Part shown: positions 1-45,028 of the stretch, piece after piece
Layout: the number at the start of each line of letters is the position of its first letter
Position numbering within the stretch: position 1 is the first letter of the stretch
DNA from: an uncultured Pirellulaceae bacterium
Lineage (GTDB): Bacteria; Planctomycetota; Planctomycetia; Pirellulales; Pirellulaceae
Length of the DNA: 45,028 nt
Direction: 5' to 3'
Assembly (NCBI GenBank): GCA_937928555.1
Contig: CALFWR010000087.1
Coordinates: forward strand, 1-45,028
The notes under the pieces: generated by a model
Told to the model about the DNA's origin: nothing
The model's input: only the letters and a program-made list of their open reading frames with translations
The model's database searches: none
Translations under genes and position numbers: made by a program

Positions 1-141
1 ATCCGCGACTCAGATACGATGAAACGATCGCTGTGGTTTTCATCTACCGGATGATTCACATTTCTTGTTGAAGTTCAGCTTTTCCCTTGCCTCCTGTTGG
101 CCAAGCGTAGAATCAACGCCCGTCGTCGTGAATAATCCGGG
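1..141 (-). mobile_element. MITE-like element, copy 1 (cut by window edge)
   Basis: This is the 3' part of the 187-bp element, in the orientation that ends ...CGTCGTCGTGAATAATCCGGG at 141. It shares the interior with the complete copies at 7854, 18003, 19358, 21028, 30499, 33244 and 36771. The outer end lies outside the window, so its target duplication cannot be checked; the inner flank starts ATAGA. It lies about 60 bp beyond the pepA stop codon. No coding capacity is seen. Confidence 0.9.
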
Positions 142-202
142 ATAGAAATCGCCACCCAATGGCCAACGTCGACCGGAGAGTTCCAATCGGCAGCATGGCA
201 AA

Positions 203-1648
203 CTACAGGCTTTCGGCTAGCTGGACCAACGACCGGACCATGCATCCGCTCGCGCCGCCATCGATCCACGCCGCTGGCTTGTCCGCAAAACTGGGACCGG
301 CGATGTCCAAATGCACCCATGGAACGTCCTGAACAAACTCTTCAAGGAACTTGGCGGCAGTAATCGTGCCGCCCCAACGACCGGTCCCCACGTTTTTCAC
401 ATCAGCGATCGTACTTTTCAGCTGCTCCGAGAAATATTTGTGCATTGGCAGCGACCAGACACTTTCGCCACTGGTATTGGCAGCGGAAATCAACTGGTCG
501 GACCAGTCGTCATCGTTGCTCATCACGCCCACGATTTCGGTCCCCAACGCCACCAGACAAGCCCCCGTCAGTGTCGCCAAATCGATCAGGCGATCCGCAC
601 CGTTTTCGATCGCCACATCCAAAGCATCCGCCAACACCAATCGGCCTTCGGCGTCGGTGTTGTGGACTTCGATCGTTTTTCCGGAGCGACTGGTCAGCAC
701 ATCGCCAAGGCGAAAGCTGTTTCCGGCGATCATGTTTTCGACTAGGCCCACGACACCGATAACGTTCTGTTTTACGTTCAGTTCGGCGAGGGCTTTCATG
801 GTGCCGACCACCGTCGCGGCACCGGCCATATCGCACTTCATGTCCAGCATCCCGGCAGTGGGCTTGAGAGAAAGCCCGCCACTGTCAAACGTGACTCCCT
901 TTCCAACATAGGCCACTGGAGCATCGGACTCTGTGCCGCCATTGTGACGCATGATCACCAACCGGGACTCGCGCGTGGAAGCCTTGCCGACGGCCAGCAG
1001 CGCACCGCATCGCTCGCGCTCAAGCCGCTCCTGGTCCCAGACTTCGACTTCGAATCCGGATTCCTTTCCCGTTTGCACGATCATGTCGGCAAACGATTCA
1101 GGATGAAGATCATTCGCTGGCATGTTCACTAGGCGACGCGTCAACCGGATACTTTCGCCCAGCACTTTGCCTCGGGTTAAATCTTCAGTGGAAACCTCAA
1201 ACCCCAACGAGACGCTTTGGATCTCGTTAAGCTTTTTCTTTTCCATGTACAGGTCCTGCCCAACGCAGCCGTTGATCAATCCGCAGATCGCATCCGGGAC
1301 GACGTCGACGTTTATATAAGTCGCAACATGCTCTCGCTGTTTGCTGCCGACGGTTTTGGAAACCACTCCGCCAACGCGATACGAAAACGTTTCGTCAACA
1401 TCGTCCTTGCTTCCCAGGCCAACCACCAACACGAGCGGCGCTTTGACTCCCGCCGGGCCATGCAGCACCGACGTCGAGAATCGCTCTGCGGAGACTTCTT
1501 CCAGCTCAATCATCCTAGAAAGCACACCGCCGGCAGCGTCGTCGATTTCTTTGGCGGGCCCGTCGAGCGGCTCATCTTTCCAGATGCCGATCGCCACCAC
1601 ATCGGCTTCGATTTCGGTGGCGGAAACAGTGGTCGTTTGTATGTTCAT
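203..1648 (-). CDS. pepA: Leucyl aminopeptidase (M17 cytosol aminopeptidase)
   Basis: Manganese/zinc-dependent M17 aminopeptidase that removes N-terminal residues from peptides in the cytoplasm. The C-terminal catalytic half carries the family blocks GKGVTFDSGGLSLKP, MKCDMAGAATV and NTDAEGRLVLADAL, which hold the metal-ligand Lys, Asp and Glu residues and the catalytic Arg. The N-terminal third (about residues 1-160) is the usual less conserved macrodomain-like part. The protein is about 481 residues, normal for the family. The open frame extends upstream to a TTG at 1681, but the ATG at 1648 (MNIQTTTV) gives a more typical N-terminus; neither has a clear Shine-Dalgarno. It is transcribed in the same direction as cutA, about 130 bp downstream of it, so co-transcription is possible but not shown. 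Confidence 0.93.
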   Translation of the reverse strand: MNIQTTTVSATEIEADVVAIGIWKDEPLDGPAKEIDDAAGGVLSRMIELEEVSAERFSTSVLHGPAGVKAPLVLVVGLGSKDDVDETFSYRVGGVVSKTVGSKQREHVATYINVDVVPDAICGLINGCVGQDLYMEKKKLNEIQSVSLGFEVSTEDLTRGKVLGESIRLTRRLVNMPANDLHPESFADMIVQTGKESGFEVEVWDQERLERERCGALLAVGKASTRESRLVIMRHNGGTESDAPVAYVGKGVTFDSGGLSLKPTAGMLDMKCDMAGAATVVGTMKALAELNVKQNVIGVVGLVENMIAGNSFRLGDVLTSRSGKTIEVHNTDAEGRLVLADALDVAIENGADRLIDLATLTGACLVALGTEIVGVMSNDDDWSDQLISAANTSGESVWSLPMHKYFSEQLKSTIADVKNVGTGRWGGTITAAKFLEEFVQDVPWVHLDIAGPSFADKPAAWIDGGASGCMVRSLVQLAESL

Positions 1649-1777
1649 ATTTTTGCCATGTTTGATTTTTGACGTTTGCAAAAATGTAACCCATTGGCCC
1701 CGGAAGATAAACTTGGCTACTTCAATCGATCAGCAACGATGAGAATCGCCAACATCGTTGGCTTGTCAGCGTTGCGT

Positions 1778-2110
1778 TCAGCGTCGCGTTTCGGTGCGGA
1801 CCCAATTCAGATAGTGATCGCAAACATCAGCGGCATTGACAACGATGATCTGCGGCAGATCATATTTGTGCATCTCGCGAATCTTTGACTTGATCGCTTC
1901 GACGTGCTCTTGGGTGGTCTTGATCGCACAGCTGAATTCTTGCTCGCTGGCAACACTGCCCTGCCACACATAGATGCTTTGAATCGGCTGGCTGATCTGG
2001 CAACAAGCCGCAAGCCTCTCCTCAACCAAGGCGGTAGCGATGTTTTCCAGTTCATCGCGATCGTCCGAAGTCGTCGTGATGATGACAAGGTTCCCGGCGG
2101 TTTCGCTCAT
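1778..2110 (-). CDS. cutA: Divalent-cation tolerance protein CutA
   Basis: Small trimeric CutA1-family protein of 110 residues, the typical length. The family pattern is intact: an N-terminal beta strand (NLVIITTTSDDRDE), the LVEERLAACCQI segment, the SIYVWQG strand, an acidic EQEF turn and the C-terminal H-KYDLPQIIVV stretch. The family is linked to divalent metal tolerance, but its biochemical role is unsettled. Its ATG overlaps the TGA of the upstream hypothetical gene (ATGA at 2107-2110), so the two are probably translationally coupled in one operon. Confidence 0.92.
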   Translation of the reverse strand: MSETAGNLVIITTTSDDRDELENIATALVEERLAACCQISQPIQSIYVWQGSVASEQEFSCAIKTTQEHVEAIKSKIREMHKYDLPQIIVVNAADVCDHYLNWVRTETRR

Positions 2111-2571
2111 GAGTTTTCAACGCAGAAATCAAACAGGGCTTCCCATTCGGCAAACGCCATCTTCTGCGTTTCGGCGGTCAATAATCCTGTGCGGTAATCG
2201 GACTGGCACCGATCAACAAACTCATACCGATCAAATGGCTCATCCATTGCAGCCATTGCCGGATGCTCGCCAACGCGCCGGTACCAGTACTTGCTATTGG
2301 AAAAGTCGCCTTCGGTGCGATGCATGATCGCGTGCCACCAACTGCCTTCGGGCGTGCCGATGTCCTGACTTATCGCGTGAGAACGATCAAGAAAATTGTG
2401 CAGCAGCCACAATCCCGAAGCACAGCATTTGGCGAAATTCGATTTTCCGGCGGTGGCTTGTGCCAAAGAATCCAGATCGTCGAAAGCCTCCTGATTCGGA
2501 TCCGGGTCCAACGCCAGGGCATATCCGGTGATAACTTTGTCGCTCTTGAGCGATGCGGGGATCGAAAGCAT
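2107..2571 (-). CDS. Hypothetical protein coupled to cutA
   Basis: A 154-residue soluble protein with no signal peptide or membrane segment. It has a conserved-looking core, GSWWHAIMHRTEGDFSNSKYWYRR, spread over residues about 74-97, rich in Trp, His and Tyr. I recall similar hypothetical proteins but cannot assign a function. The open frame continues upstream to a TTG at 2610; the ATG at 2571 (MLSIPASL) is preferred. It overlaps cutA by 4 bp, so the two form a unit, and it is divergent from lptD. Confidence 0.75.
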   Translation of the reverse strand: MLSIPASLKSDKVITGYALALDPDPNQEAFDDLDSLAQATAGKSNFAKCCASGLWLLHNFLDRSHAISQDIGTPEGSWWHAIMHRTEGDFSNSKYWYRRVGEHPAMAAMDEPFDRYEFVDRCQSDYRTGLLTAETQKMAFAEWEALFDFCVENS

Positions 2572-2771
2572 GGAAAGATAGGCAAACAGGAAAAGGCGAT
2601 TTTCTCTCAAGATTCGTTTCGCAGTTTATGTCACCTACGCGAATCGCTGCCAATCTTACCCAAAGTCCGCCGCAGATGCGAAGGAGGGATCGCCGGCAGC
2701 GAGCTTTCCTTGCCGTCGCCGACTTACTTTTGCCTGCTCTTTTCGGCTCAAAACACGAGCCCTTATTTGCC

Positions 2772-2800
2772 TTGCTGCGGAATAGTGCCGCTCCTATACT
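2772..2800 (+). promoter_or_regulatory. Predicted sigma70-type promoter of the lptD-like gene
   Basis: TTGCTG at 2772-2777 and TATACT at 2795-2800 are separated by 17 bp, close to the vegetative consensus. The predicted transcription start near 2807 falls upstream of the ATG at 2847. This argues against the much longer reading frame that is open back to 2553. Confidence 0.5.
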
Positions 2801-2846
2801 TCGCCGCCCCATTTTCGCAGGCTTAACACGACGCAAGCGGGCTCGC

Positions 2847-5800
2847 ATGTGCGAGGTCCATTTGCTTTCGCGCAGCGGTTCGTTTCGTATTGGTCGACTT
2901 CGGTCGGTTTCCAACTTGAACAACAAAGTTCGCAATTTACTATTTTCCAGTCACATCGTGGCCCTGGCTGTCATTGCGCTCACACTGCTGCCGGGCATCG
3001 CCTGCACGACTCTACACGCTCAAACTGAAATTGCGTTTGAGCGTCCGCCTGACACCTGGTCGGTCCGGGTAAGCGCCGACGCGATCGCCCAATGGCAATC
3101 GGGAAGCTACGACATCCTGCATCTCGATGGCAACGTCCAGATCGCCCAGGGCGACGTCACCGCCACCGCGCAGCAAGCGATTCTTTGGATCGAAATCCCG
3201 GAGGACGACGGGCCTCACCGTAGCCAGGTGATGTTCTACATCGAAGGCGACGCAGTGATTGAGCTTCCTCATGGAAAGATCACCGATCAGTCGATTGTCG
3301 ATTCTCTGTTCACCCAGGAGACCGTCCTGCTAGGTCGTGGTCGCCGCGTCGAAGCCACCGCACGAAGCAACGAAACCTTTGACCGCGCCGTCGCACTACG
3401 CCGCGCCAAAGCCGAATCGGCGTTCGTTCGACCGGTTCAGTACCAGCAAACCGAAATCATCGAAGGCACTTTCGCGCCCAGCAGCACACCGACGGTCGTT
3501 TCGCCGCAGACCGGCATCGCGGCACCTGTTGGTTCGGTGCTGGACAACAACGCCGCTGCGATTGGCCAGAACCAGCCGACCTTTGGCCAGCCGTTTCCTG
3601 ATTCACCTTCGGCGTTTGGCCAAACCGATCTGACCAGTGGACTTGCCCCGCAAACCGAATCGGATCCTTTCGCCGGGTTTGGCTTACAGGCTCCGCAGAA
3701 CGCAAACGAAAGCGATCGATTCTTCGTCAGTCCGCGTGATCCCCTGGCGCGACCGAGCTTGCGATCCGAACGCAACCCAAACAACCCTGCCGAGCGGATT
3801 TCCATCTACAACGGCGGCATTCGGGCACAAGTCAACAGCTCGGATATCAACTCGCAAGAACAGTTCAGGCGTGACAAAGTCAAAGCGCTAACCATCCTCG
3901 CGGACAACCTTGTTCAATGGCGAACGACGCTTCCATCCGGAGAAACGGTCGACGAAATCTACCTCGAAGGCAATGTGGTGTTTGCCAAAGGTGAACGCGT
4001 CATCGAAGCGGATCGCATGTTCTACAACGTCAACACGCAGCAGGGCACAATCCTGAATGCTGAAATTCGTACACCAATCGAAGGCTACCCCGGAACAGCC
4101 CGCATCAAAGCCGACGTGCTGCGGCAGTTGGACGAAAACCGGATCCAGGCAATCGGTTCCGCTTTCACCACCAGCCAGTTGGGCTTTCCCAGATACTGGG
4201 TCCAGTCCCAGGACATGCTGCTGACCCAACAGCCAACGCAAAAAATCGACCCGGTGACCGGACAGCCACTTTTCGACCAACAATCCGGCCAGCCGCAGGT
4301 CGGACAGGACTACTTCCTCCAAGCCCAAAGCAACCGCGTCTACCTCGCGGGCGTTCCGGTATTTGCGTGGCCCAAATTTGAAACCAATCTCTCAGACCAA
4401 AACGTGTTTCTGACTCGCCTCCGCGTCGGCAACGACAACATCTTTGGCTTTCAGTTGGGCGCTGGCTGGGACATATACCAGCTGCTTGGCCGCCGAGCCC
4501 CGCGCGGCACAACGTGGACCGGGCTGGTGGATTACTTTAGCGAACGTGGTCTGGCGTTTGGATCGGACTTCAACTACCGCCGCAATGAATTCTTTGGCAT
4601 TCCCGGCCGGGTTCGGGGCAGCTACAAAAGCTGGTTCATCAACGATGACGGTTTGGATTTTCTGGGTCGTGGCCGCGGCAGACTGGTTCCCGAAGAAGAC
4701 TTCCGGGGTCGCATTCGGGCCTTCCACCGGCATGACTTTGCGCCCGGATTCGTGCTTCGCGGCGAGTTAGGATACATCACCGATCGCAACTTTCTTGAGC
4801 AATTCTACGAACGCGAATGGGACACCGACAAAGACGCCACCACCGGCATTTGGCTGGAGCGGAACGTCGGCACGCAAAGCATCAACGTGATCGCCAATTT
4901 TCAGGTCAACGATTTCTTCACACAGACATCATGGCTGCCCCGCATTGACCATTTCGTAATCGGCCAGCCGCTTTTGGGCGATCGGGTTGTCTGGCACAAT
5001 CGAACCAACGCAGGCTATGGCCGCGTTCGTGTGGCCACAGACCCGACCGACCCCAACGACCTGGCGGACTTTGATCCCCTTGCCTGGGAAGCCGACGTGG
5101 AAGGGATCCGTTTCCACACCCGCCACGAACTCGATTTTCCAGTGCAACTGGGCCCCACCAAAGTTGTCCCCTACATCCTGGGAGACCTTGGATACTGGCA
5201 GGAAGGCCTGGACGGCAACGACCTGCTGCGCGGCGGTGGACAGGTCGGCATTCGAGCCAGCACGCCCATCTGGAAAATTCGCCCCGAGATTCGCAGCACG
5301 CTTTTAAACGTCAACGGCCTGGCCCATAAAGTCACGTTTGACTTCGAAGCCTTCTACGCGGATGCCTCGCAGGACCTGGACGAATTTGCACTTTACGACC
5401 AAATCGACGATGACTCTCAGGAACATTTCCGCCGCCGGTTCGCTTTCAACACCTTTGGCATCACTGCCGGCGAGGATACTCCGCTCCAGTACGACGAAAG
5501 GTTCTTTGCACTTCGCAGCGGACTGCAAGGTAACGTCACCAGTCAGTCGGCAGAGATTTTTGATGATCTGTCGGTGGTTAAGTTCGGTGCAAGGCAACGT
5601 TGGCAGACCAAACGGGGTGCTCCGGGCCGACAGCGGGTGGTTGACTGGTTGACTCTGGACACCAAAGTCAGCTTTTTCCCGAGAGCCGACCGCGACAATT
5701 TCGGGGCGGACTTCGGGTTGTTCGACTACGACTTCCGTTGGCACATTGGCGATCGGGTCGCCCTGGTTTCCGATGGCTTTGCGGACTTTTTCTCGCAGGG

Positions 5801-6176: not shown

Positions 6177-6244
6177 CGGTTCCCTGCGGGTTCTTTCGAT
6201 GCATCGGTGAGCCGCTGGCCGTAAGGCGCTGTAAGGCCTCGGGT
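6174..6244 (+). repeat. REP-like hairpin repeat, copy 1
   Basis: The stop codon of the lptD-like gene is the first part of TAGCGGT. About 30 bp on follows GTGAGCCGCTGGCCG then ...AAGGCCTCGGGT. AGCGG pairs with CCGCT, and GGCC with GGCC across a short loop. This copy has an internal duplication of GTAAGGC. Related copies are at 17711 and 34856. It may act as a terminator or REP. The rest of the gap up to 6500 holds no gene I can support; only a GGAG ribosome-binding site just before the next ATG stands out. Confidence 0.6.
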
Positions 6245-6500
6245 AGAAGCACGGTTCGCATTTTTTCAGTTTGCGTTTTGGCAGATTACCCCGGTCCACC
6301 TCAAAAGAGCCTGAGACTCCGCAAACCCATGGCCTCACGGCAGACGCCTCAACAGGATTGCAAAACAACGGCACCGGCTCCCAAACCGCTCACTTGCAGG
6401 CAGCAATCAACCTTCCGCAAATCGCAGCCAATCGCCCAACATCGCGCTCGCAGATGCGTACAATAAAGCACATACGTCCCGTCATGACCCGGAGTGAATC

Positions 6501-7853: not shown

Positions 7854-8040
7854 CCCGGATTATTCACGACGACGGGCGTTGATTCTACGTCCGGCGAACA
7901 GGAGCAAGGGGAAAGCTGAATTTCAACAAGAAATTTGAATCATCTGGTAGATGAAAACCACAGCGATCATTTCATCGCATCCGAGTCGCGGATCACTGTC
8001 AGAACTGATTCTGACGCCCACGCCTCGTGAATAATCCGGG
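7854..8040 (+). mobile_element. MITE-like element, copy 2, TSD ATCAA
   Basis: Complete 187-bp copy. It starts CCCGGATTATTCACGA and ends TCGTGAATAATCCGGG, and is flanked by perfect 5-bp direct repeats ATCAA at 7849-7853 and 8041-8045. It carries the internal inverted repeats AATTTC/GAAATT and GATGAAA/TTTCATC. It fills most of the 294-bp gap between two convergent genes and ends 11 bp before the stop codon of the TPR protein gene. Confidence 0.95.
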
Positions 8041-18002: not shown

Positions 18003-18190
18003 CCCGGATTATTCACAAGGCGTGGGCGTCAGAATCAGTTCCGACAGTAATCCGCGACTCTGATGCGATGAAACGATCGCTGTGGTTTTCATCCACCGAA
18101 TGATTCACATTTCTTGTTGAAGTTCAGCTTTTCCCCTGCTCCTGTTGGCCAGACGTAGAATCAACGCCCGTCGTCGTGAATAATTCCGGG
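18003..18190 (-). mobile_element. MITE-like element, copy 3, no TSD
   Basis: Complete 188-bp copy with one extra T in the right terminal repeat (AATTCCGGG) and a change in the left (TTCACAAGG). The flanks are CTGAA and CAATG, so unlike six other complete copies it lacks a target duplication. Either it is old, or recombination with another copy exchanged a flank. It sits between the decayed ORF and the 3' end of the GyrB-like gene. Confidence 0.93.
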
Positions 18191-19357: not shown

Positions 19358-19545
19358 CCCGGATTATTCACGAGGCGTGGGCGTCAAAATCAGTTCCAAC
19401 AGTGATCCGCGTCTTCTGATGCGATGAAACGATCGCTGTGGTTTTGATCTACCGGACGATTCGCAGTTCTCGTTGAAATTCAGTTTTTTCCTTGCTCCGG
19501 TTGGCCAGACGCAGAATCAACGCCTGTCGTCGTGAATAATTCGGG
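19358..19545 (-). mobile_element. MITE-like element, copy 4, TSD ATTAA
   Basis: Complete 188-bp copy flanked by perfect direct repeats ATTAA (19353-19357, 19546-19550). It separates the HEAT-like gene from whatever lay upstream: only 25 bp remain between its end and the ATG at 19571. The frame of that gene is open into the element terminus, with an in-frame GTG at 19532. The rest of the 19245-19570 gap holds nothing further. Confidence 0.95.
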
Positions 19546-21027: not shown

Positions 21028-21214
21028 CCCGGATTATTCACGAGGCGTGGGCGTCAGAATCAGTTGAGACAGTAATCCGCGACTCAGACACGATAAAACG
21101 ATCGCTGTGGTTTTCATCTACCGGATGATTTACATTTCTTGTTGAATTTCAGCTTTTCCCTTGCTCTTGTTGGCCAGACGTAGAGTTAACGCCCGTCGTC
21201 GTGAATAATCCGGG
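21028..21214 (-). mobile_element. MITE-like element, copy 5, TSD CTAAT
   Basis: Complete 187-bp copy with perfect flanking direct repeats CTAAT (21023-21027, 21215-21219). It fills most of the 314-bp gap between two converging genes; the remaining sequence shows no gene. Confidence 0.95.
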
Positions 21215-27978: not shown

Positions 27979-28161
27979 AGTATCTCGCCTCTCGGAGGCG
28001 AGATGCTAACTGTGAAAACTTGACGCGGAGAGGTCGTGATTTAATCCACTTCAATGCCAATGCTCTCCCGCCGCTCTCCCTTTGGCTTTGGCAATGTTAG
28101 TCGCGTGCAACCCTCCCCGGCGGTGAGCCGCCGACCCTCCCAAGTGGGAGGGTGATCGAAA
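27979..28161 (+). repeat. Second repeat family, copy I (uninterrupted)
   Basis: About 183 bp with three hairpins: CTCGCC/GGCGAG near 27984, CGGCGG-tgag-CCGCCG near 28116, and CCCTCCCA-ag-TGGGAGGG near 28133. A related sequence occurs at 36709-37060, where it is interrupted by an MITE. Shared blocks include CGGAGAGGT, CAATGCCAATGC and CAACCCTCCCCGGCGGTGA. It contains no ORF. It lies 20 bp beyond the stop of the adjacent secreted-protein gene and may act in transcription termination or be mobile itself. Confidence 0.75.
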
Positions 28162-30498: not shown

Positions 30499-30685
30499 CC
30501 CGGATTATTCACGACGACGGGCGTTGATTCTACGTCTGGCCAACAGGAGCAAGGGAAAAGCTGAATTTCAACAAGAAAGGTGAATCATTCGGTAGATGAA
30601 AACCACAGCGATCGTTTCATCGCATCAGAGTCGCGGATCACTGTCTCAACTGATTCTGACGCCCACGCCTCGTGAATAATCCGGG
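30499..30685 (+). mobile_element. MITE-like element, copy 6, TSD TTCAC
   Basis: Complete 187-bp copy with perfect direct repeats TTCAC (30494-30498, 30686-30690). The internal inverted repeat GATGAAA (30595-30601) / TTTCATC (30615-30621) is perfect here. It starts 11 bp after the argH stop codon. Confidence 0.95.
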
Positions 30686-30886: not shown

Positions 30887-33157
30887 ATGAGTATGCGCCG
30901 ACTTCGCCCCGTTTTTCCATGGATGGCTCTCCGATTTTCAGGGCCTCCGATTGTTTTAGCCTCCTTTATCACCGCACTTTCGGTGGTCCCGTTGGCGGTT
31001 GCGCAAAACGATAATCCGTTCGGAGAAGACGACAGCGACGACGCAGCCATCGTCCTTACCGAACCAAACACAACACGCGTTGGCGAATCGACGACCGACC
31101 TGCTGATTCGCTCGGTGACCCAATCCAATCCGACAACACCGTTGCAGCTTTCACAAGCCATCGTTGTGATGATGGACCTGGACCAATGGGACCGAGCCAA
31201 CGACTACCTGAACCAGTTCGCCGCAATCGAACTTGACGGTCCCGGCGCCTACAAGTTGAACGACAAAATTGGATCGGACTTTTTCTATCAGTTGGCACGT
31301 GTGGATGAACTCCAACCCGCCGGTCGCGAACAGGCCACACGGGTCTTTGGACTTGCCACCCAATGGGCCAATTCGCGGGAAAGAATCGATGGCCTTCTGG
31401 ATCAACTGGCCAGCGAAAACACAATCCTGCGCAGCGAGTCCTTTGAGCGACTTCGGCGAATTGGCAACCCTGCGGTTGCCCGGATACTTGAATCGTTCAC
31501 TGACGAAAACCGCAAAGACGAATACCCTGGCTTGCGCGGCGCACTGTATCGCTTTGACAAAACGGCGGTTCCGGTTCTGATTGGTGCAGCGCACGCAGAA
31601 GCTCCCGAAGTTCAACTCGAAGCCATTCGCGCGCTGGCAGAACAGAGTTCCAACGAAGCGCTCGACGAGATGATGTGGGCCTGGCTTGATCCGAAATCTC
31701 CCCCCAAGAGCAAAGCCGTCGCTGCGTCGAGGATGACAAAGGCCGGCGTTGCCTTGGACCCCGGTAAGATGGAAGCCCGACTCGCGACGCGCGTGCGGCG
31801 CTTTCTCGCTGGACGTCGCACCTCCACCGACGACATCAGCGGAGACCTCAAAGTCTGGAACTGGAACGGTGACACCGGCCAACTCGAATCCGCAAGAATC
31901 GATCCGCGAATTGGCACACGCCAGCGAGGCCTGAGGCTGGCCCGCACGCTTTACAACATCAATCCGAATTCGGTCGAAAACCAGAAACTTCTGATGTTGT
32001 CCGAATTGGAATCACGCAAGCGCGCCAGCGGGCCGTCGCGACGCATCGACGCGCAAGCGTTTGTTGATGCTTATCCCCAAGCCAATGCCGATCGACTCAA
32101 TCAACTGCTGCTCGACGCGATCCAGATGGATTTGATTCCGGCCGCGATTGCCTGCTGTGAAGTCCTGAAAACGTCTGCCAATGCGGCGCACCTCAACGGT
32201 CGCCCCTGCCCGCTGGTCGAAGCGATTCTCAGCGGCGAAAGGCAGCTTCAGTTCGCAGCCTTTGACGCCATCACGGAGATCGATCCGAAAACTCCTTTTC
32301 ATGGCTGCAGCTACGTGGCGGACTTTGCCACCTACATCGCGTCGAGCCGATTTCAGCGCGCGGTGTTGGTGGGGCACAATCGCGAAGAAGTCGCTCGGTC
32401 AACCGCCGCCACTTTACAGTCGCTCAAATGGGGAGGCGATCCCGCGATCAACAGCCGGGAGATCTTCGAACGCATCAACGCCAACCCCGATCTCGAAATT
32501 TTGCTTATCGGTGATGCCATCACCCGGCCAGCGGCCCGCGAACTGGTGCAGCAACTGCGAAACAACTGGAAAGCAAAGCGAATTCCAATCGGAATCATTG
32601 CCGATACCGAAGAACGCCTGATCCGGTCGTCACGACTTACCCACGGAGCCGATCAGCTTTTGACTTTCCCGACTCCTACCGACACACAGGCATTGGCTCG
32701 CCAAATCGGCGAGCTTGGCAAACTGCACAAGACCTGGGGTGCGGTCAGCAGCGACGACCGCTTCGCCCACGCAAGTCGTGCCGTGCAGTGGCTTAGCCGC
32801 ATCTCGGTGGACTCGCAATATGGATTCTATAACGTTGCCAAGTTCGAGGACCGGATGCTGGAGTGGCTTTACCATCCCGAGTTCACAGAACCGGCCGCAA
32901 AGATTCTTGCTGCCAACCCTTCGGCAACCGCTCAAAGAGCCCTAGTCAGTTTCATCAGCCAAAATGAACTTCCCATCGAAGCCCGTCAGGCGGTCGCCAA
33001 CTCGTTTGAAAAAGCCATCGAATCAAGTGGAACGCTACTGACGACCGGCGATATTAAGCTCCAGTACGATCGCTACAACGCCAGCGAAAGCCAACCCGTG
33101 GAAACGCAACAAATCCTTGGACGTGTCCTGGACATCATCGAAAAGGCCGCCCAATAG
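30887..33157 (+). CDS. Large HEAT-repeat-type exported protein
   Basis: 756 residues. An N-terminal signal sequence (about 1-40; FITALSVVPLAVAQ) points to export. Residues about 60-330 are helical and include HEAT-like repeats (SFERLRRIGNPAVARILESFTDE, VPVLIGAAHAEAPEVQLEAIRALAE). Residues about 510-610 contain a Rossmann-like segment, LEILLIGDAITRPAARELVQQLRNNW, then IPIGIIADTEERLIRSSRLTHGADQLLTFP. This recalls a receiver domain but lacks a clear phospho-acceptor Asp pair. The C-terminus is helical again. I know of no assigned function. The stop codon TAG is part of an inverted repeat. Confidence 0.8.
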   Translation: MSMRRLRPVFPWMALRFSGPPIVLASFITALSVVPLAVAQNDNPFGEDDSDDAAIVLTEPNTTRVGESTTDLLIRSVTQSNPTTPLQLSQAIVVMMDLDQWDRANDYLNQFAAIELDGPGAYKLNDKIGSDFFYQLARVDELQPAGREQATRVFGLATQWANSRERIDGLLDQLASENTILRSESFERLRRIGNPAVARILESFTDENRKDEYPGLRGALYRFDKTAVPVLIGAAHAEAPEVQLEAIRALAEQSSNEALDEMMWAWLDPKSPPKSKAVAASRMTKAGVALDPGKMEARLATRVRRFLAGRRTSTDDISGDLKVWNWNGDTGQLESARIDPRIGTRQRGLRLARTLYNINPNSVENQKLLMLSELESRKRASGPSRRIDAQAFVDAYPQANADRLNQLLLDAIQMDLIPAAIACCEVLKTSANAAHLNGRPCPLVEAILSGERQLQFAAFDAITEIDPKTPFHGCSYVADFATYIASSRFQRAVLVGHNREEVARSTAATLQSLKWGGDPAINSREIFERINANPDLEILLIGDAITRPAARELVQQLRNNWKAKRIPIGIIADTEERLIRSSRLTHGADQLLTFPTPTDTQALARQIGELGKLHKTWGAVSSDDRFAHASRAVQWLSRISVDSQYGFYNVAKFEDRMLEWLYHPEFTEPAAKILAANPSATAQRALVSFISQNELPIEARQAVANSFEKAIESSGTLLTTGDIKLQYDRYNASESQPVETQQILGRVLDIIEKAAQ

Positions 33158-33243: not shown

Positions 33244-33430
33244 CCCGGATTATTCACGAGGCGTGGGCGTCAGAATCATTTCCGACAGTGATCCGCGACT
33301 CTGATGCGATGAAACGATCGCTGTGGTTTTCATCTACCAGACGATTTACATTTCTTGTTGAAATTCAGCTTTTCCCTTGCTCCCGTCGGCCCGACGTAGA
33401 ATCAACGCCCGTCGTCGTGAATAATCTGGG
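33244..33430 (-). mobile_element. MITE-like element, copy 7, TSD ATGAG at a start codon
   Basis: Complete 187-bp copy with perfect direct repeats ATGAG at 33239-33243 and 33431-33435. The second copy supplies the ATG of the Uma2 gene; the first copy is its stranded twin. Between HEAT gene and element lies about 85 bp, with the short inverted repeat and nothing else recognised. Confidence 0.95.
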
Positions 33431-34033
33431 ATGAGGACTGCCAAACATCGGATGCCAATTTCCATCCAGGACTATCTCGAAGATGAAAAGTCCGCACAGC
33501 TGAAGCATGAGTACGTCTTTGGCGAAGTCTACGCAATGGTTGGCGGGACAGTCGCCCACAGTCGAATCTCGGTGAACGTGACAGGTGAACTATTTGCTCA
33601 ACTCAAAGATTATCCTTGCGAGGTGTTCAACTCCGACGCAAAGATAAAAATCACGACGAAAAACGGCGTTCGCTTCTTCTACCCGGACGTCTCGGTTGTC
33701 TTGGACTCCAACCCTGACCCGGAACTCTACCAGGAATCCCCCAAAGTCGTCATCGAAGTCCTTTCCAGATCGACTCGACGCGATGATCTCGGCTCCAAAA
33801 AAGACGGATACCTGGAACTGGCTTCTCTCGACACCTACATTTGCCTTGAACAATCAACGCAGGTTGCGATCGTGTTTCAACGTACCGCCATGGGAACATT
33901 TGAGGAGCTTGAATACGAAGGAGACCAAGCGATCGTGCCGCTGCCGTCGATCGATTGCACGCTTCCTTTGGGTGATGTTTACAGGGGAGTCGAACTGGTG
34001 GAAGAAAAACACGACGACGAACTCGGCCAGTAG
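33431..34033 (+). CDS. Uma2 family nuclease-like protein (PD-(D/E)XK)
   Basis: 200 residues of the Uma2/DUF820 family, which has a restriction-endonuclease fold. The N-terminus has the family motif KHEYVFGEVYAMVGGT, with HSRISVNV after it. The putative active-site residues are in FFYPDVSVVLD (Asp) and KVVIEVLSRSTRRDD (Glu, then Ser/Thr-Arg-Asp). Length is typical. Cellular role is unknown for the family, which is often found in multi-copy accessory sets. The apparent start ATG at 33431 lies in the 5-bp duplication left by element copy 7, and the next ATG is at 33452 (MPISI). There is no Shine-Dalgarno in the element terminus, so expression may be lost or altered. Confidence 0.88.
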   Translation: MRTAKHRMPISIQDYLEDEKSAQLKHEYVFGEVYAMVGGTVAHSRISVNVTGELFAQLKDYPCEVFNSDAKIKITTKNGVRFFYPDVSVVLDSNPDPELYQESPKVVIEVLSRSTRRDDLGSKKDGYLELASLDTYICLEQSTQVAIVFQRTAMGTFEELEYEGDQAIVPLPSIDCTLPLGDVYRGVELVEEKHDDELGQ

Positions 34034-36708: not shown

Positions 36709-37060
36709 AGTAGCTCGCTTCTCGGAGGCGAAAATTCACAGACTACGGCTCGGAGAGGTTGTGGTTTTATCCCGGATTATTCACGACGACGGGCGTTGAC
36801 TCTCGTCTGGCCAACAGCAGCAAGGGAAAAACTGAATTTCAACGAGAAATGTAAATCATCCAGTAGATGAAAACCACAACGATCGTTTTATCGCATCAGA
36901 GTCGCGGATCACTGTCTCAACTGATTCCGACGCCCACGCCTCGTGAATAATCCGGGTTTATTCACCGCAATGCCAATGCCATTCCTGCAGCAGTGTTAGA
37001 CGAGCGCAACCCTCCCCGGCGGTGAACCGCCGACCCTCCCAGATGGGAGGGTGATCAAAA
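36709..37060 (+). repeat. Second repeat family, copy II, interrupted by MITE
   Basis: The same family as 27979-28161, but split into 36709-36770 and 36957-37060 by MITE copy 8. Left of the insertion it has CTCGCTTCTCGGAGGCG and CGGAGAGGTTGTGG; right of it CAATGCCAATGCC and the two terminal hairpins (CGGCGG-tgaa-CCGCCG, CCCTCCCA-ga-TGGGAGGG). It lies between the kinase and the NRDE gene; the rest of the gap to 37126 shows nothing more. Confidence 0.75.
36771..36956 (+). mobile_element. MITE-like element, copy 8, TSD TTTAT, nested
   Basis: Complete 186-bp copy with perfect direct repeats TTTAT (36766-36770, 36957-36961). It is inserted into repeat family 2. Comparison with the empty homologous site near 28040 shows the insertion boundaries independently of the direct repeat. 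Confidence 0.95.
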
Positions 37061-37912: not shown

Positions 37913-38099
37913 GAGCGTCACTTTTCAAAGATCTTGAGTTGGTCCGTAACTTCAGCAACCCGGAATTCCCTCTCGAACTGCTGCTACTGGTCTCCGCCAG
38001 CAAAAAGTCCAATCTATCCGAATGAGGTCCGCAAGACACCCTAAAAAGCGGGGTAAAGGGCCGAATAGCCATCAAATCCAAAATCTGAAAAGCGGCAAA

Positions 38100-38125
38100 A
38101 ACCAAAGCCAATCGCCCCTTTGGTT
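38100..38125 (-). terminator. Possible intrinsic terminator of the sigma/anti-sigma operon
   Basis: Read on the minus strand, AACCAAAG and CTTTGGTT form an 8-bp stem with a 10-nt loop, followed by TTTG. It starts 21 bp downstream of the anti-sigma gene's stop codon at 38146. The stem is GC-poor but position and T-tail fit. Confidence 0.45.
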
Positions 38126-38145
38126 CTTTCGTCTGTCGCCGCTTG

Positions 38146-40358: not shown

Positions 40359-40530
40359 GAACGGATTTCAGAAGAAGGTTGCAATTAAGTTAACCCGCTC
40401 GGGCTGATTTCGTGGTGACCCAATTTGGGCTTTGTCCCCCATTTTGCGAATGATTCGCTGTTACCGCGAGCCGATTTGCCGGGAAACCGGGATTCCAACG
40501 AAGAACTAGCCTTTTGCCGGTAAAACAAAT

Positions 40531-40536
40531 ATAATC
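40531..40536 (+). promoter_or_regulatory. TATAAT -10 box before histone-like gene
   Basis: TATAAT at 40531-40536 lies 57 bp before the ATG. No good -35 is found at 16-18 bp. Tentative. Confidence 0.35.
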
Positions 40537-40593
40537 TCCGGTTTTCCCAGTCCGCGCCAATCGCGGTCCTCAACCCCCATTCAATACCTGATC

Positions 40594-41049
40594 ATGGCCA
40601 AAAAGGCGACCAAGAAAGCTACCAAGGCGACCAAGAAAGCTACCAAGAAAAAGGCGGCTCCGAAAAAGAAAGCCGCCAAGGCCACCACCAAAAAGGCAAC
40701 CAAGAAGGAAAAAGGCGATGACGACGCCGCCGAGGAAGCTCCCAAGAAAAAGAAGAAAGCCACCAAACGGAAAAGTCGCGCGAAAGCCGCCGAAGTCCGC
40801 CTTCGTGTCTTTTGGGGAGTCTTCAATCACCAGATGAAGCGAGTCGCTCTCTACGAATTCAACCAACGCAAAGCCGCCGAAAAACGTGCCAAAGAGCTCA
40901 GCCCCGAAGGCAAGCCACCGCACTTTGTGCAGAAGGTCAAGGAAGAAGTCCTTGATGCTCCGGTAGCCGACGGCGAAGAAGCAGCGGCACCGAAAAAGAA
41001 AGCCACAAAAAAGAAGGCTGCCAAAAAGAAAACCACCAAGAAAAGCTAG
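40594..41049 (+). CDS. Histone H1-like lysine-rich protein
   Basis: 151 residues. The first 70 and last 25 residues are Lys/Ala/Thr-rich repeats (KKATKKATKATKKATKKK at the start, KKKATKKKAAKKKTTKKS at the end), very like the C-terminal tails of histone H1 and bacterial H1-like proteins. Between them lies a short folded-looking part of about 55 residues, RLRVFWGVFNHQMKRV through to HFVQKVKEEV. This arrangement, two basic arms around one globular part, suggests DNA compaction. That is an inference. The gene is single and followed by the M50 gene after 60 bp. The DNA itself shows irregular repeats (CCAAGAAAGC) because of the protein repeats. Confidence 0.78.
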   Translation: MAKKATKKATKATKKATKKKAAPKKKAAKATTKKATKKEKGDDDAAEEAPKKKKKATKRKSRAKAAEVRLRVFWGVFNHQMKRVALYEFNQRKAAEKRAKELSPEGKPPHFVQKVKEEVLDAPVADGEEAAAPKKKATKKKAAKKKTTKKS

Positions 41050-41054
41050 TCCTG

Positions 41055-41072
41055 GCAGAATCTCCCTTCTGC
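41055..41072 (+). terminator. Short hairpin after histone-like gene
   Basis: GCAGAA (41055-41060) and TTCTGC (41067-41072) form a perfect 6-bp stem 6 nt beyond the stop codon. There is no T-run, so termination is only possible, not established. Confidence 0.3.
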
Positions 41073-41109
41073 AAGTTCACCTTCAGTTAAAGCCCGAGGT
41101 AAATCGATC

Positions 41110-41889
41110 GTGTTGTCCGAACCGGGAACGACCCCCTACGACCTCAATTTCGACTTCCTCGGCTTTCCCTGTCGCGTTCATCCCGCATTTTTTGTGCTGC
41201 CGATCCTCTTCGGTGCAGGCCTTGGCGGTCCCGAGATGAACGCCGGCGTCGGTATCCTGCTGATGGCGGTTGTGTTTTTCGTTTCCATTCTCGTTCATGA
41301 ACTTGGGCACGCGCTGGCGTTTCGCAAGTACGGAATTCCCTCACGCGTGGTTCTTTACTGGATGGGTGGCCTGGCAATTCCCGAAAGCGGTGGCTGGGGC
41401 AGTCGCACCCGATCGCTCACGCCCGAACAGCAGGTCGTCGTCTCAGGCGCCGGGCCGGCAGCAGGATTTTTGGTCGCACTGCTGGCGACCCTGATCTTCG
41501 TTGCCCTCGGATCCACCGTTTCGCTCGACTGGATGGGTCCCATGCCAATGCCGAAATTCACTTTGAAAGCAGATTCCCTGCTGGCGAACAACGAGCCCCT
41601 GCGAATTCTTTTGTTGATGTTCGTCATCGTGAACATCTTTTTGAACCTGCTGAACCTGTTGCCGGTCTACCCACTCGATGGCGGACAAATCTCCCGGCAA
41701 CTGTTCATCAAAGCCGACCCATGGGGTGGTATTCGAAACAGCATGATGCTTTCGATCGGAGTGGCCGTTTTTGCCGCTGTGATAGCGTTCAAATTCAATG
41801 ATCGCTTTATCGGTATCTTCTTTGGGTTCATGGCCTGGCAAAACTATCAAACGCTGCAACAGGGCGGCAACCCGCGACGGCCCTGGTGA
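41110..41889 (+). CDS. Site-2-protease-like M50 membrane metalloprotease
   Basis: 259 residues, polytopic. The zinc motif HELGH lies at residues about 64-68 in the membrane segment FFVSILVHELGHALAF, and the second metal-binding motif is NLLPVYPLDGGQ (about 184-195). Between and after them are hydrophobic segments, six in all by eye. This fits the short site-2 protease family that cuts transmembrane substrates such as anti-sigma factors. Whether it acts on the anti-sigma protein two genes upstream is an open question. The start is GTG 41110 (GTG TTG TCC); TTG 41113 is possible. Confidence 0.87.
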   Translation: MLSEPGTTPYDLNFDFLGFPCRVHPAFFVLPILFGAGLGGPEMNAGVGILLMAVVFFVSILVHELGHALAFRKYGIPSRVVLYWMGGLAIPESGGWGSRTRSLTPEQQVVVSGAGPAAGFLVALLATLIFVALGSTVSLDWMGPMPMPKFTLKADSLLANNEPLRILLLMFVIVNIFLNLLNLLPVYPLDGGQISRQLFIKADPWGGIRNSMMLSIGVAVFAAVIAFKFNDRFIGIFFGFMAWQNYQTLQQGGNPRRPW

Positions 41890-42040
41890 CCCGTCAAGCA
41901 TCGGCGAAACAATGACTGTCGTCGTGGATTTCACGGGAAATCCTCCGGGAGCAGAGAATCCTGGCAAAGCCCACTACCTTTATCTGACCGATCGCTAACT
42001 GACGATGCGATCGTTTGTCCCAGGAGCGTCCTCCGCTTCG

Positions 42041-42049
42041 TGCTATAAT
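42041..42049 (+). promoter_or_regulatory. Extended -10 promoter, leaderless start
   Basis: TGCTATAAT matches the extended -10 consensus exactly. Its last base is 9 bp before the A of the ATG at 42059, so transcription would start 2-4 nt before the start codon, giving a leaderless mRNA. No Shine-Dalgarno is present. Confidence 0.5.
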
Positions 42050-42058
42050 TGCGGCGTC

Positions 42059-42319
42059 ATGAAATCTGTCCCTCAAATCCTTGCCCTGTTGTTACTGGCT
42101 GTCTTTACGACCGAAGCACACGCCTGCCCTACCTGCAAATCCGCCCTACATGACGGGCTTGTTGTGGGATACGCGATCAGCATCCTGTTTATGATGGCGA
42201 TGCCGTTTGCAATTTTCGCGTTCTGGATCGTCACCATCTGGCGACTGCGCAATCAGGCGATCTCGGGTGAAAACGAATTGGTGCTCGAGGAACTGGCGTT
42301 TGAAAATTCCGCCCGGTAG
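42059..42319 (+). CDS. Small membrane protein with CPTC motif
   Basis: 86 residues from ATG 42059. A hydrophobic N-terminus (1-18, a signal or first membrane segment) is followed by HACPTCKSALHDG, a Cys-x-x-Cys motif that would lie outside the membrane, and a transmembrane helix (about 34-58; GYAISILFMMAMPFAIFAFWIV). The end is acidic. The frame continues upstream to 42005, but the promoter at 42041 makes that start unlikely. I recall similar small planctomycete proteins but no function. It could bind metal or be a redox partner. Confidence 0.7.
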   Translation: MKSVPQILALLLLAVFTTEAHACPTCKSALHDGLVVGYAISILFMMAMPFAIFAFWIVTIWRLRNQAISGENELVLEELAFENSAR

Positions 42320-42366
42320 TACTTTCACCCAGTGAAACTTCCGCCCGGCAACGCGAGTAATGGTGG

Positions 42367-42657
42367 ATGATGTTTCGTTTTCGCATTCGTGACCTGTTCC
42401 TGATTACAGCCTGCGTGGCCCTGGAAATCAGTCTCCTCAACCGATATCAGATCGGCTGGGTATTTTGCCTTACTCTTCTTCTGATGGGACTGCTGATCGT
42501 GGCGATCGGCACGACGGCTTTCTTCAGCCAATCCAAAAATGGAATGCTGGACATCGATTCCAATCCCGGCACGCGAGCCATGCTGTGGCTGCTACGAATT
42601 GACCTGGTCTTTATCGCAATCAACCTCTTGTTGGTCATTTTCGGTGCGATCCAGTGA
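42367..42657 (+). CDS. Small membrane protein, two or three helices
   Basis: 96 residues. RIRDLFLITACVALEISLL opens the protein, a motif (F-RIRDLF-LIT) I know from planctomycete hypothetical proteins. Two strongly hydrophobic segments follow (about 31-52, 75-95). It lies 47 bp after the CPTC-motif protein, so the two may share a transcript. The start is ATG 42367 or the adjacent ATG 42370. No function is recognised. Confidence 0.68.
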   Translation: MMFRFRIRDLFLITACVALEISLLNRYQIGWVFCLTLLLMGLLIVAIGTTAFFSQSKNGMLDIDSNPGTRAMLWLLRIDLVFIAINLLLVIFGAIQ

Positions 42658-42681
42658 CGCAACCTGGCATCAAAACTCAAA

Positions 42682-43242
42682 CTACTTCCAGTCGCGATTG
42701 GCTTTGACCCATTCAATCTGAGCCACATGGTGGTCGGTGTGCCAAACGTAGCTGGGCAATGCCTCGGCCAGCGAAACCACGTTGCCAATTTCCGGATGAA
42801 AATAGTCTCTTTGAAACTGCTGTTCGTCCAGGTGCGTGATCAGATTCGCCCAGCGCGAGTGAAGCCCGACCAGAATCGATAACGAATCGTCGATCGGTGC
42901 CGTTTTTGAATCGGGCGTTTCGGACCAGAGCGTTTCGTTGTAGGCCTTGATCAGCGGCGATTCCTCCGTCAGAGCCCACTTGTAACGGACGTAGGCATTC
43001 ACGTGACTGTCAGCAAGATGGTGAACGATCTGCCGAATCGTCCAGTTGCGATAAAGCGTATCCAACTGGGCATCATTGAGCGTTTTTACTGCAGCGGCAA
43101 CCCTGTCCGGAGCAGCCTTGAGCAAGCCCACGTACTTTGCCTTTTGCTCGTCGTCGTAGTCTCCCGGCGGCACAAACTCGCCTGCCGGGAACAAGGGCGC
43201 GGCTTCATCACTCATGTTCTTTCCCTGTTCATTGATATCCAT
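42682..43242 (-). CDS. DinB/YfiT-type metal-dependent protein
   Basis: 186 residues of the DinB/YfiT four-helix-bundle family, whose members include thiol (bacillithiol) transferases. The metal-binding histidines are in RQIVHHLADSHVNAYVRYKW and SYVWHTDHHVAQIEWV. The N-terminal block FPAGEFVPPGDY and the TLYRNW segment also fit. Two starts are plausible: ATG 43242 with GGAG 6 nt upstream, and ATG 43215 (MSDEAAP) with AGGGA 6 nt upstream. Substrate is unknown. It is a lone gene facing the two small membrane proteins. Confidence 0.85.
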   Translation of the reverse strand: MDINEQGKNMSDEAAPLFPAGEFVPPGDYDDEQKAKYVGLLKAAPDRVAAAVKTLNDAQLDTLYRNWTIRQIVHHLADSHVNAYVRYKWALTEESPLIKAYNETLWSETPDSKTAPIDDSLSILVGLHSRWANLITHLDEQQFQRDYFHPEIGNVVSLAEALPSYVWHTDHHVAQIEWVKANRDWK

Positions 43243-43281
43243 CCACCACTCCCCTGTTTGCTTTTCCAGTAGCGACCCAAA

Positions 43282-43467
43282 CCGGAATTATTCACGACGA
43301 CGGGCGTTGATTGGCGCTGAATGGCGTTAAAGCGAACAACAAAGCCGAATCACCTTCAGGACTTCGGTTCACCTCGCTGATAAAGTCCGAAACAGGGGCT
43401 TTTTCCAAACGATACGGAGCTCATTGGTTGAACTGAAAGTCACACCCACGCCTCGTGAATAATCCGG
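43282..43467 (+). mobile_element. MITE-like element, variant with unrelated interior
   Basis: The left end (CCGGAATTATTCACGACG, then GGGCGTTGATT) and right end (CCCACGCCTCGTGAATAATCCGG) match the main family. The roughly 130 bp between them do not resemble the other copies. Total length 186 bp is the same. Flanks CCAAA (43277-43281) and CTAAA (43468-43472) agree at 4 of 5 positions, an eroded target duplication. The right end directly abuts the thrC stop codon. Confidence 0.85.
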
Positions 43468-44835
43468 CTAAATCCCCAAACGTTTGGCGATCTCTTCTTT
43501 CACCGCATCGGCATCGTTGGGCAGATACGTTGGCGGATTCGCATGCTGCGAAACCATGTCGTCCAGTTTCGATTCGTGATAACGGACTTTGAAATCCGTG
43601 AACTTGAGCCCGTGTGCGGTGCTGATCACAATCGTCCGCTGATTCTTTTTGATCTGTCCGGACTTCACAAGCTTTTTCAAAACCGCCAACGCAACGCCGG
43701 TGTGCGGGCAGCAGTACATTCCGGTACGATCCGCTTCGGCAGCCGCTTCGGCAAGCTCCGCCTCAGTCGCCTGTTCAACCACTCCGTCAGTTTCCTGCAC
43801 CGCTTTGACGGCTTTGTGGTAGCTAACCGGATCGCCGATGCGAATCGCATTGGCCAGAGTCTCGCCCGCGGTGACGGCGATTTTGTCCGAGAACCCGTTC
43901 TTGTAAGACTGGTAAAACGGATCGGCCTTTGCTGCCTGCGCCGCGACAAGCCGAGGCATCGTGTTGATGATGCCAAGGTCCATCATCAGCTTGAAACCCT
44001 TATGCAAGGCACTGATGTTTCCAAGATTGCCAACCGGAATAATGATCCAGTCGGGAACTTCCCAGTCGAACTGTTTCACAATCTCGATGCCAACGGTCTT
44101 TTGGCCTTCGATCCTCAAACTGTTCATCGAGTTCGCAAGGTAGATACTTTGGTCCTTGGTGACTTCCTTGACGACTTTCATGCAACCGTCAAAGTCCGTA
44201 TCCAACGCCAACACGTGGGCGCCGTTGGAAACGGGTTGAATTAACTGCGCGGTGCTGACCTTGCCGGCGGGCAAAAAGATGATCGCCGGAATCCCCGCAT
44301 ACGCAGCGTAAGCCGCCAAAGCCGCACTGGTGTCACCGGTACTGGCACACGCGACCGCTTTCACCGGATTGCCTGGCATCCCCATCATTTGTTTGACAAC
44401 ACTCACCAACACCGTCATGCCCAAATCTTTGAAGGACCCGGTGTGACTGTTGCCGCAGAGCTTGATCCACAGATCCGGAACTCCCAACTGACGTCCCAGA
44501 CGTTCGGCCCAAAACAGATTCGTATTCCCTTCGCACATGCTGACCACATTTTCGTTACGCAGCGACGGCACGACCCACTCGCGCATCGCCCACACACCAC
44601 TGCCATAGGGCCACGTCGTGGTGCTGGCTCTGGAATCCAGCAACTGCTGCCACTTGTACGGGTTGAGTCGCCGTAGTGGCTCGCGCTCGTGGTACACTTC
44701 CAACAGGCTGCCGCATTGGGGACAGGTGTAAATCACGTCGTAGATAGAATGCTTGCCATCGCAGCCGGCAAAGCAGCGAAAGTAAGTCTGGTCGGTTTCA
44801 ACGGTGGCTTGTTCAGATGGGGTGACGGTAGACAT
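43468..44835 (-). CDS. thrC: Threonine synthase
   Basis: 455 residues; PLP-dependent conversion of O-phosphohomoserine to threonine. The N-terminus has a Cys pair pattern (FRCFAGC...[12 protein letters not shown]) that probably binds zinc. The PLP lysine is in [12 protein letters not shown], followed by [20 protein letters not shown], the phosphate-binding region. The cofactor glycine loop [14 protein letters not shown] is also present. The start is ATG 44835 (MSTVTPSEQ); a TTG at 44853 would add six residues. The stop codon TAG lies inside the eroded duplication of the variant element. No other thr gene is visible nearby. Confidence 0.94.
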
Positions 44836-44889
44836 GGCGATCGTAAAATTCAAAAAAGGGCTTCAACAACGTAATCTGTTGTCATTAAA

Positions 44890-45028
44890 CCCGGATTATT
44901 CACGACAACGGGCGTTGATTCTACGTCTGGCCAGCAGGAGCAAGGGAAAAGCTGAATTTCAACAAGAAATTTGAATCATCCGGCAGATGAAAACCACAGC
45001 GTTCGTTTCATCGCATCAGAGTCGTGGA
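44890..45028 (+). mobile_element. MITE-like element, copy 10 (cut by window edge)
   Basis: The first 139 bp of the standard element, starting CCCGGATTATTCACGA at 44890. The flank before it is TTAAA (44885-44889), the expected target duplication; the matching end is outside the window. It lies upstream of thrC, 55 bp from its start codon. Confidence 0.93.

What the first reader, a model, noticed from the sequence alone, without database searches (positions are those of the whole stretch)
1..45028. Dispersed 187-bp MITE family, ten copies in 45 kb, with 5-bp target duplications
Seen directly: ten copies (1-141, 7854, 18003, 19358, 21028, 30499, 33244, 36771, variant 43282, 44890-45028), both orientations, terminal inverted repeats CCCGGATTATTCACGA / TCGTGAATAATCCGGG, and perfect 5-bp direct repeats ATCAA, ATTAA, CTAAT, TTCAC, ATGAG, TTTAT at six of the eight complete copies. 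None encodes a protein. The element makes up about 4 per cent of the window. Inference: a non-autonomous element moved in trans by a transposase encoded elsewhere. If the density is genome-wide, it would exist in hundreds to over a thousand copies. Transposases of the IS1380 type are one candidate by terminal pattern and duplication length, but I am not certain of that match.
Basis: partly seen in the sequence, partly recalled or inferred. Interest (0 to 1): 0.85.

Follow-up and report, generated by a model that had tools for sequence, protein, structure and literature searches.

The report
Jumping DNA repeats, hundreds of copies
Hundreds of copies of a 187-base "hitch-hiking" DNA element with no gene of its own have spread, mostly between genes, through one bacterium's genome, and the enzyme that most likely moved them was not found in that (incomplete) genome.

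Summary
Ten copies lie in the window (eight complete, two cut by the contig ends); six of the eight have perfect 5-bp duplications. Genome-wide the exact 16-bp end occurs 787 times, its reversed control 0 times; this extrapolates to about 530 complete copies, roughly 3% of the DNA. In a 1.03-Mb sample 81 of 147 distinct complete copies have a perfect 5-bp duplication, usually NTNAN. Copies nested in copies, and one empty site in two same-genus genomes, show real insertion. Three subfamilies share length and ends.

The IS1380 guess is supported: a related genome holds a 1,684-bp IS1380 element with identical 16-bp ends. But elements with such ends in relatives duplicate 4 bp (7 of 10 pairs; none 5), and no partner transposase was found in the window's 91%-complete assembly.

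Verdict: an IS1380-type MITE family, nearly confined to this genome among those searched, moved in trans by a lost or unassembled transposase with a 5-bp stagger. New member of a known kind; the 4-to-5-bp shift is the unusual part.

The parts
1..141 (+). copy cut by the contig start (model positions 48-187)
7854..8040 (-). complete copy; TSD ATCAA on both sides
18003..18190 (+). complete copy, right end with one inserted base; no matching TSD (CTGAA / CAATG)
19358..19545 (+). complete copy; TSD ATTAA on both sides
21028..21214 (+). complete copy; TSD CTAAT on both sides
30499..30685 (-). complete copy, just 3' of the argH-like gene; TSD TTCAC; empty site in same-genus genomes G025 and G015
33244..33430 (+). 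complete copy; TSD ATGAG; the ATG of ORF 33431-34033 lies in the right-hand TSD
36771..36956 (-). complete copy; TSD TTTAT on both sides
43282..43468 (-). copy of subfamily B (same ends, diverged interior); no perfect TSD (CCAAA / TAAAT)
44890..45028 (-). copy cut by the contig end (model positions 50-187)

Best explanation
A MITE (miniature inverted-repeat transposable element) family of IS1380 type. Each copy is a 187-bp cargo between two inverted ends of about 27 bp (16 perfect bases plus a conserved subterminal GGGCG block). A DDE transposase of the IS1380 family, encoded elsewhere, bound the ends in trans, cut the element out and joined it to a 5-bp staggered cut at NTNAN; host repair made the 5-bp duplication. 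Several waves (subfamilies A, B, C) spread in one lineage to about 530 complete copies. Insertions between genes survived, and subfamily A has since aged roughly as neutral DNA. The master element is lost from this genome, or not assembled in it. Shown: ends, TSD, target motif, nested insertions, one empty site, abundance, near-confinement to this genome among those searched. Inferred: the transposase family in this genome, cut-and-paste chemistry, the number of waves, loss of the master.
For: 787 exact TIRs against 0 control. 81 of 147 distinct copies with an exact 5-bp TSD; in the 86 matched rows (duplicates included) T at position 2 in 85 and A at position 4 in 82. Nested insertions flanked by both inner and outer TSDs: L111 inner ATCAG, outer ACCAA; L144 inner CTCAC, outer GTTGG. 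Empty site after argH. IS1380 element L077 978-2661 in genome G087 with identical 16-bp ends and transposase NF033539 at 287 bits (cut-off 180); four more relatives' IS1380 elements with CCCGGAT... ends and 4-bp TSDs. Ends less diverged than the interior: 0.029 (TIR), 0.020 (subterminal), 0.065 (interior). Perfect-TSD fraction of subfamily A by divergence tertile 0.66/0.58/0.54 against a neutral expectation of 0.71/0.57/0.44. 99 of 135 classifiable copies intergenic against 16% of random NTNAN sites.
Against: In relatives the same kind of ends go with a 4-bp YTAR duplication (7 of 10 end pairs, none 5). The IS1380 element left in this genome (L009) has other ends and appears to have CTAG flanks. 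No transposase with matching ends was found here. L077's subterminal bases differ from the MITE's, so L077 is a cousin of the master, not the master. Subfamily B keeps 10 of 18 perfect TSDs although it is 17% off its consensus, so its spread of divergence is not simply age; the divergence of A is wider than one burst would give (variance/mean 1.41).
Confidence: 0.8

Rival explanations
1. The same kind of MITE, but mobilised by a non-IS1380 DDE transposase that has converged on similar ends and makes 5-bp duplications.
For: TSD is 5 bp NTNAN here but 4 bp YTAR for the IS1380 elements and shorter elements with such ends measured in relatives; no matching IS1380 gene found in this assembly.
Against: Sixteen identical bases shared with an IS1380 element are unlikely by convergence. 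A paper states that the IS1380 family makes 4-5 bp repeats (PMC12116815, passages). The only PF01609 match in this genome is an IS4-type fragment whose multicopy relatives end in a different sequence.
Confidence: 0.14
2. A host-maintained repeat with a function (terminator, RNA, binding site) kept by selection between genes, mobility being incidental or ancient.
For: Intergenic bias and strong predicted folding of the consensus (z -4.6 for A, -5.3 for C).
Against: No Rfam match in the window at gathering scores. The outer stem of the predicted folds is the inverted ends themselves. Interiors differ among A, B and C and vary more than the ends. Copies nest inside copies. The end motif is found in 3 of 296 genomes, this one included.
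Confidence: 0.04
3. Assembly or binning artefact: repeats from another organism or misjoined contigs.
For: 20 of 64 contig ends examined lie in a copy, and 66 of 147 distinct copies lack a perfect TSD.
Against: Copies occur in 56 of the 61 sampled sources, no sampled pair of subfamily A is identical (best 98.9%), and TSDs and nested insertions are not what misassembly makes.
Confidence: 0.02

Closest known systems
IS1380-family insertion sequences; here L077 in genome G087
   Same: Identical 16-bp terminal inverted repeats; T...A target palindrome (NTAN against NTNAN); 4-5 bp TSD stated for the family (PMC12116815, passages)
   Different: The MITE has no transposase gene, duplicates 5 bp instead of 4, and has a different subterminal block (GGCGTGGGCG / CGACGGGCG)
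Short elements with IS1380-type ends in relatives (172 bp in G064, 159 bp in G074)
   Same: First 13 bases of the ends the same to within 2 mismatches, same size class
   Different: 4-bp YTAR duplications; consensus A, B and C match them only at the ends; 6 and 1 exact 16-bp ends in those genomes
Correia elements and ERIC (known prokaryotic MITEs; PMC10969869, passages)
   Same: Short and multicopy, MITEs of prokaryotes being normally intergenic; ERIC is reported at 711 copies in Photorhabdus luminescens, so this copy number is high but not a record
   Different: Not compared by sequence here; by recall they have other ends and other presumed mobilisers
QMITE2 and Chunjie bacterial MITEs (PMC10969869, passages)
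   Same: Similar length (about 190 and 178-235 bp), TIRs plus direct repeats, partial copies
   Different: 78 and 95 copies, against about 530 complete copies estimated here; not compared by sequence

Membership tests
MITE | short, non-coding, terminal inverted repeats | tested here: met
   187 bp, 16-bp TIR extending to about 27 bp; too short for a transposase
MITE | target-site duplication of fixed length | tested here: met
   5 bp in 81 of 147 distinct copies; of 156 rows 1 has exactly 4 bp and 0 have 6 bp; shuffle mean for 5 bp 3.25
MITE | insertion into previously empty sites | tested here: met
   nested copies and one orthologous empty site, at the only window copy whose two neighbouring genes are syntenic in the relatives fetched
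MITE | ends shared with an autonomous element | tested here: met
   identical 16-bp ends on an IS1380 element, but in another genome; not found in this one (which had no positive control)
IS1380-derived | IS1380 terminal repeat (CCCGGAT... type in these relatives) | tested here: met
   (5 of 17 IS1380 loci tested show such ends with a TSD, one more such ends without)
IS1380-derived | TSD of 4-5 bp | tested here: met
   5 bp; family range from PMC12116815. Relatives with these ends show 4 bp
IS1380-derived | IS1380 transposase gene with these ends in the same genome | tested here: not met
   three PF13701 matches in the assembly, two over the cut-off: L009 has other ends, L010 no such end within 4 mismatches, L011 is an IS4 gene. 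The assembly is 91% complete, so absence is not proven
IS1380-derived | transposition in trans by the transposase | not testable with these tools
   needs an assay

The most novel reading that the evidence does not exclude
One IS1380-type end sequence has been used with two staggers: 4 bp at NTAN in relatives and 5 bp at NTNAN here. That would mean a transposase lineage shifted its cut spacing by one base while keeping the same 16-bp recognition sequence, and then drove a lineage-specific expansion of about 500 copies before the master was lost.
Probability: 0.5. Interest if true: 0.55.

Novelty: new member of a known kind. Interest (0 to 1): 0.45.

Why it matters
It is a large MITE expansion for a bacterium, nearly confined to one genome among those searched, with no visible master. 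It gives about 500 insertions of graded age for studying how a genome tolerates non-coding parasites. The contrast between 4-bp and 5-bp duplications on the same 16-bp ends would make the control of stagger length in IS1380 transposases (prokaryotic relatives of piggyBac) directly testable.

Tried and rejected
IS4-type transposase as partner: L011 (G000 contig C96) first looked like the autonomous element, because CCCGGATTATTCATCA (14 of 16 bases of the MITE end) lies about 110 bp beyond its gene and a MITE lies on the other side. Thirteen near-identical relatives in one named MAG show a conserved block ending near GACAGTGCCATTCG, which L011 also has just after its gene, so I take it as a bystander hit by a MITE. 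The isolated 14-of-16 end stays unexplained. The resident IS1380 element L009 was rejected as partner: its ends read TCCTTAAACAAG with apparent CTAG flanks. The C30 fragment (L010) has no matching end within 4 mismatches.

Autonomous element in the sample: no non-MITE pair of these ends at IS size. The two long pairs found, 1,116 and 1,590 bp, have MITE sequence at both ends. The sample is about a fifth of the genome. The protein search for L077 in the whole assembly found nothing but had no positive control; the PF13701 search had matches in 3 of 14 control genomes.

IS1380 ends in relatives: of 17 loci tested, 5 gave CCCGGAT-type ends with a 4-bp TSD, 4 gave ends without a clear 4-bp TSD (one of these with a 6-bp repeat containing CTAG), and 8 gave no credible ends. 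No 5-bp NTNAN duplication turned up among them.

Recombination between copies: 66 of 147 distinct copies lack a perfect TSD; 40 of these still have NTNAN on both sides. Of the 40, 22 differ at one N position (7.3 expected by shuffling) and 18 at two or three (31.6 expected). Mutated duplications explain many; up to about 18 could be exchanged flanks or misjoins. Not resolved.

Literature: seven searches listed no paper on this family; they cover an open-licence library, and only the listed rows were seen.
Full report
CHECK. The ten copies are real and at the stated places. Eight are complete (186-188 bp); two are cut because the window is a whole contig that starts and ends inside a copy. Six of the eight complete copies have a perfect 5-bp direct repeat. 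Rfam has no match in the window at its gathering scores.

GENOME-WIDE. The exact 16-bp end occurs 787 times (399 + 388) in the 4.87-Mb assembly; the reversed control occurs 0 times. I took 60 stretches plus the window, 1,034,713 bases. nhmmer gave 229 hits in 56 of the 61 sources, 219 after merging overlapping ones, of which 149 were complete. Scaling by exact ends (220 in the sample) gives about 530 complete copies and about 780 pieces for the genome. Part of the sample was chosen at contigs known to hold copies. The 21 stretches taken by contig number alone (316 kb, each from a contig's first base) hold 52 pieces, 34 of them complete, 2.7% of bases, against 3.4% in the whole sample.

TARGET. 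Of 156 complete-copy rows with flanks, 86 have an exact 5-bp repeat, 1 exactly 4 bp and 0 have 6 bp; the shuffle mean for 5 bp is 3.25, maximum 9 in 200 shuffles. After removal of duplicate rows (near-palindromic copies hit on both strands) it is 81 of 147, leaving 66 without. The repeat is NTNAN: T at position 2 in 85 of 86 rows, A at position 4 in 82 of 86; 76 of the 81 distinct matched copies have both, against a background NTNAN frequency of 4.4%.

INSERTION SHOWN DIRECTLY. In L111 and L144 a complete copy sits inside another. The inner copy has its own duplication (ATCAG, CTCAC) and the outer copy still has its own (ACCAA, GTTGG). In L128 the inner repeat is TTCAT and the outer pair (TTTAC / CTTAC) differs by one base. 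In the window, the copy at 30499 (between the argH-like gene and ORF 30887-33157) is the only one whose two neighbouring genes are both found together in the relatives fetched, so only it could be tested. In same-genus genomes G025 and G015 the argH 3' end (AAACACGTT...) runs on without the element, and with the element and one duplication removed the downstream part aligns better, as judged by eye. The bases at the junction have diverged, so the single-copy target itself is not identical in the relatives.

SUBFAMILIES AND AGE. Of 147 distinct copies 115 form subfamily A, 18 B and 10 C; four are singletons. All three consensus sequences are 186-187 bp and share about 27 bp at the left end and about 30 at the right (the last bases of B differ), with diverged interiors. 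Subfamily A is 5.4% diverged from its consensus, no two sampled copies are identical (best pair 98.9%), and the fraction of perfect duplications by divergence tertile is 0.66, 0.58, 0.54 against 0.71, 0.57, 0.44 expected from neutral decay. The spread of divergence is somewhat wider than one burst would give (variance/mean 1.41). Subfamily B does not fit simple ageing: 17% off its consensus but 10 of 18 perfect duplications; C has 3 of 10. Ends are better conserved than the interior: 0.029 for the 16-bp ends, 0.020 for the subterminal bases, 0.065 inside. I infer that the transposase read about 27 bp, and that A spread in an older period rather than now.

CONTEXT. With the elements removed in a script, 99 of 135 classifiable sites (12 further sites lay at sequence edges) are intergenic by a simple ORF rule, against 16% of random NTNAN sites. 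Among intergenic sites divergent gaps (promoter side) are 12% against 23% expected. The ORF rule is crude and admits spurious ORFs. I infer selection against hits in genes and promoters.

DISTRIBUTION. The exact 16-bp end is in 6 of 117 genomes searched, this one included, and in none of the 27 other same-genus genomes. The longer end motif ATTATTCACGAN{4,5}GGGCG is found 961 times here, 2 times in same-genus G015, once in G068 and not in the other 293 of 296 genomes (exact matches only). The 187-bp sequence as a DNA query matches 2 of 99 genomes: this one, and G015 with 25-29 bp at the ends (where at most 8 candidates per genome were scored). G015 therefore seems to hold decayed relatives, one of them an 86-bp element with both end types but no matching duplication.

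WHICH TRANSPOSASE. Genome G087 (same family) has a 1,684-bp element with both 16-bp ends identical to the MITE's, flanked by CTAG, encoding an IS1380 transposase (NF033539, 287 bits, cut-off 180). Four other relatives' IS1380 elements have CCCGGAT-type ends with 4-bp duplications (17 loci tested). Shorter elements of 159, 172 and 538 bp with such ends occur in G074, G064 and G087. Seven of 10 end pairs in the relatives' stretches have exactly 4 bp duplicated, none 5; the other three have no duplication. In this genome no such gene was found: PF13701 gives three matches, two over the cut-off; L009 has other ends, L010 none within 4 mismatches, and L011 is an IS4-type gene. PF01609 gives one match, the same L011 gene. 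The L077 protein gives none (without a positive control). The assembly is 91% complete and breaks at repeats (20 of 64 contig ends examined lie in a copy), so the master may be unassembled rather than gone.

AGAINST MY READING. The duplication length differs from that of the relatives' elements with these ends that I could measure. The subterminal block differs from L077. 66 of 147 copies lack a perfect duplication; many fit mutation, but up to about 18 may be exchanged flanks or misjoins. Empty-site evidence between species rests on one site.

KNOWN WORK. Prokaryotic MITEs of hundreds of copies are known: ERIC 711 in Photorhabdus luminescens (PMC10969869, passages); [quoted passage not shown] IS1380 is stated to make 4-5 bp repeats (PMC12116815, passages), and IS1380 transposases are used as outgroup to piggyBac (PMC10813416, passages). 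Passages of PMC9330008 were also seen. I saw no paper on this family in the listings of seven searches of an open-licence library. Verdict: a new member of a known kind, with an unusual stagger length and a large expansion nearly confined to one genome among those searched.

Noticed in passing
window 28091-28161 and 36990-37060: A second, unrelated repeat (palindromic, GGCGGTGAGCCGCC and CCCTCCC...GGGAGGG); 24 matches in the 1.03-Mb sample. REP-like by recall.
   Followed up: partly
L110 11036-11071 (G000 contig C14): A 36-bp element made of little more than the two ends, flanked by TTGAG on both sides.
   Followed up: partly
subfamily A consensus, about positions 93-107: An internal ACCGGATGATTCACA motif resembles the terminal repeat; possibly a relic of an older nested insertion.
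   Followed up: no
window 33426-33435: The start codon of ORF 33431-34033 is formed by the right-hand duplication ATGAG, so the insertion touches the start of that ORF.
   Followed up: no
G000 contig ends: 20 of 64 contig ends examined lie in a copy, so the family seems to account for a good part of this assembly's breaks.
   Followed up: partly
L155 9550-11139 (G000 contig C2): Two MITE copies about 1.2 kb apart enclose other DNA, a composite-transposon-like arrangement with unmatched flanks.
   Followed up: no
L011 (G000 contig C96): IS4-family transposase gene apparently cut by a MITE insertion, with an isolated 14-of-16 copy of the MITE end about 110 bp beyond it; relatives of the gene are multicopy in one named Pirellulaceae MAG.
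   Followed up: yes
G087, G064, G074: Other genomes of the same family carry their own short elements with IS1380-type ends and 4-bp YTAR duplications.
   Followed up: partly
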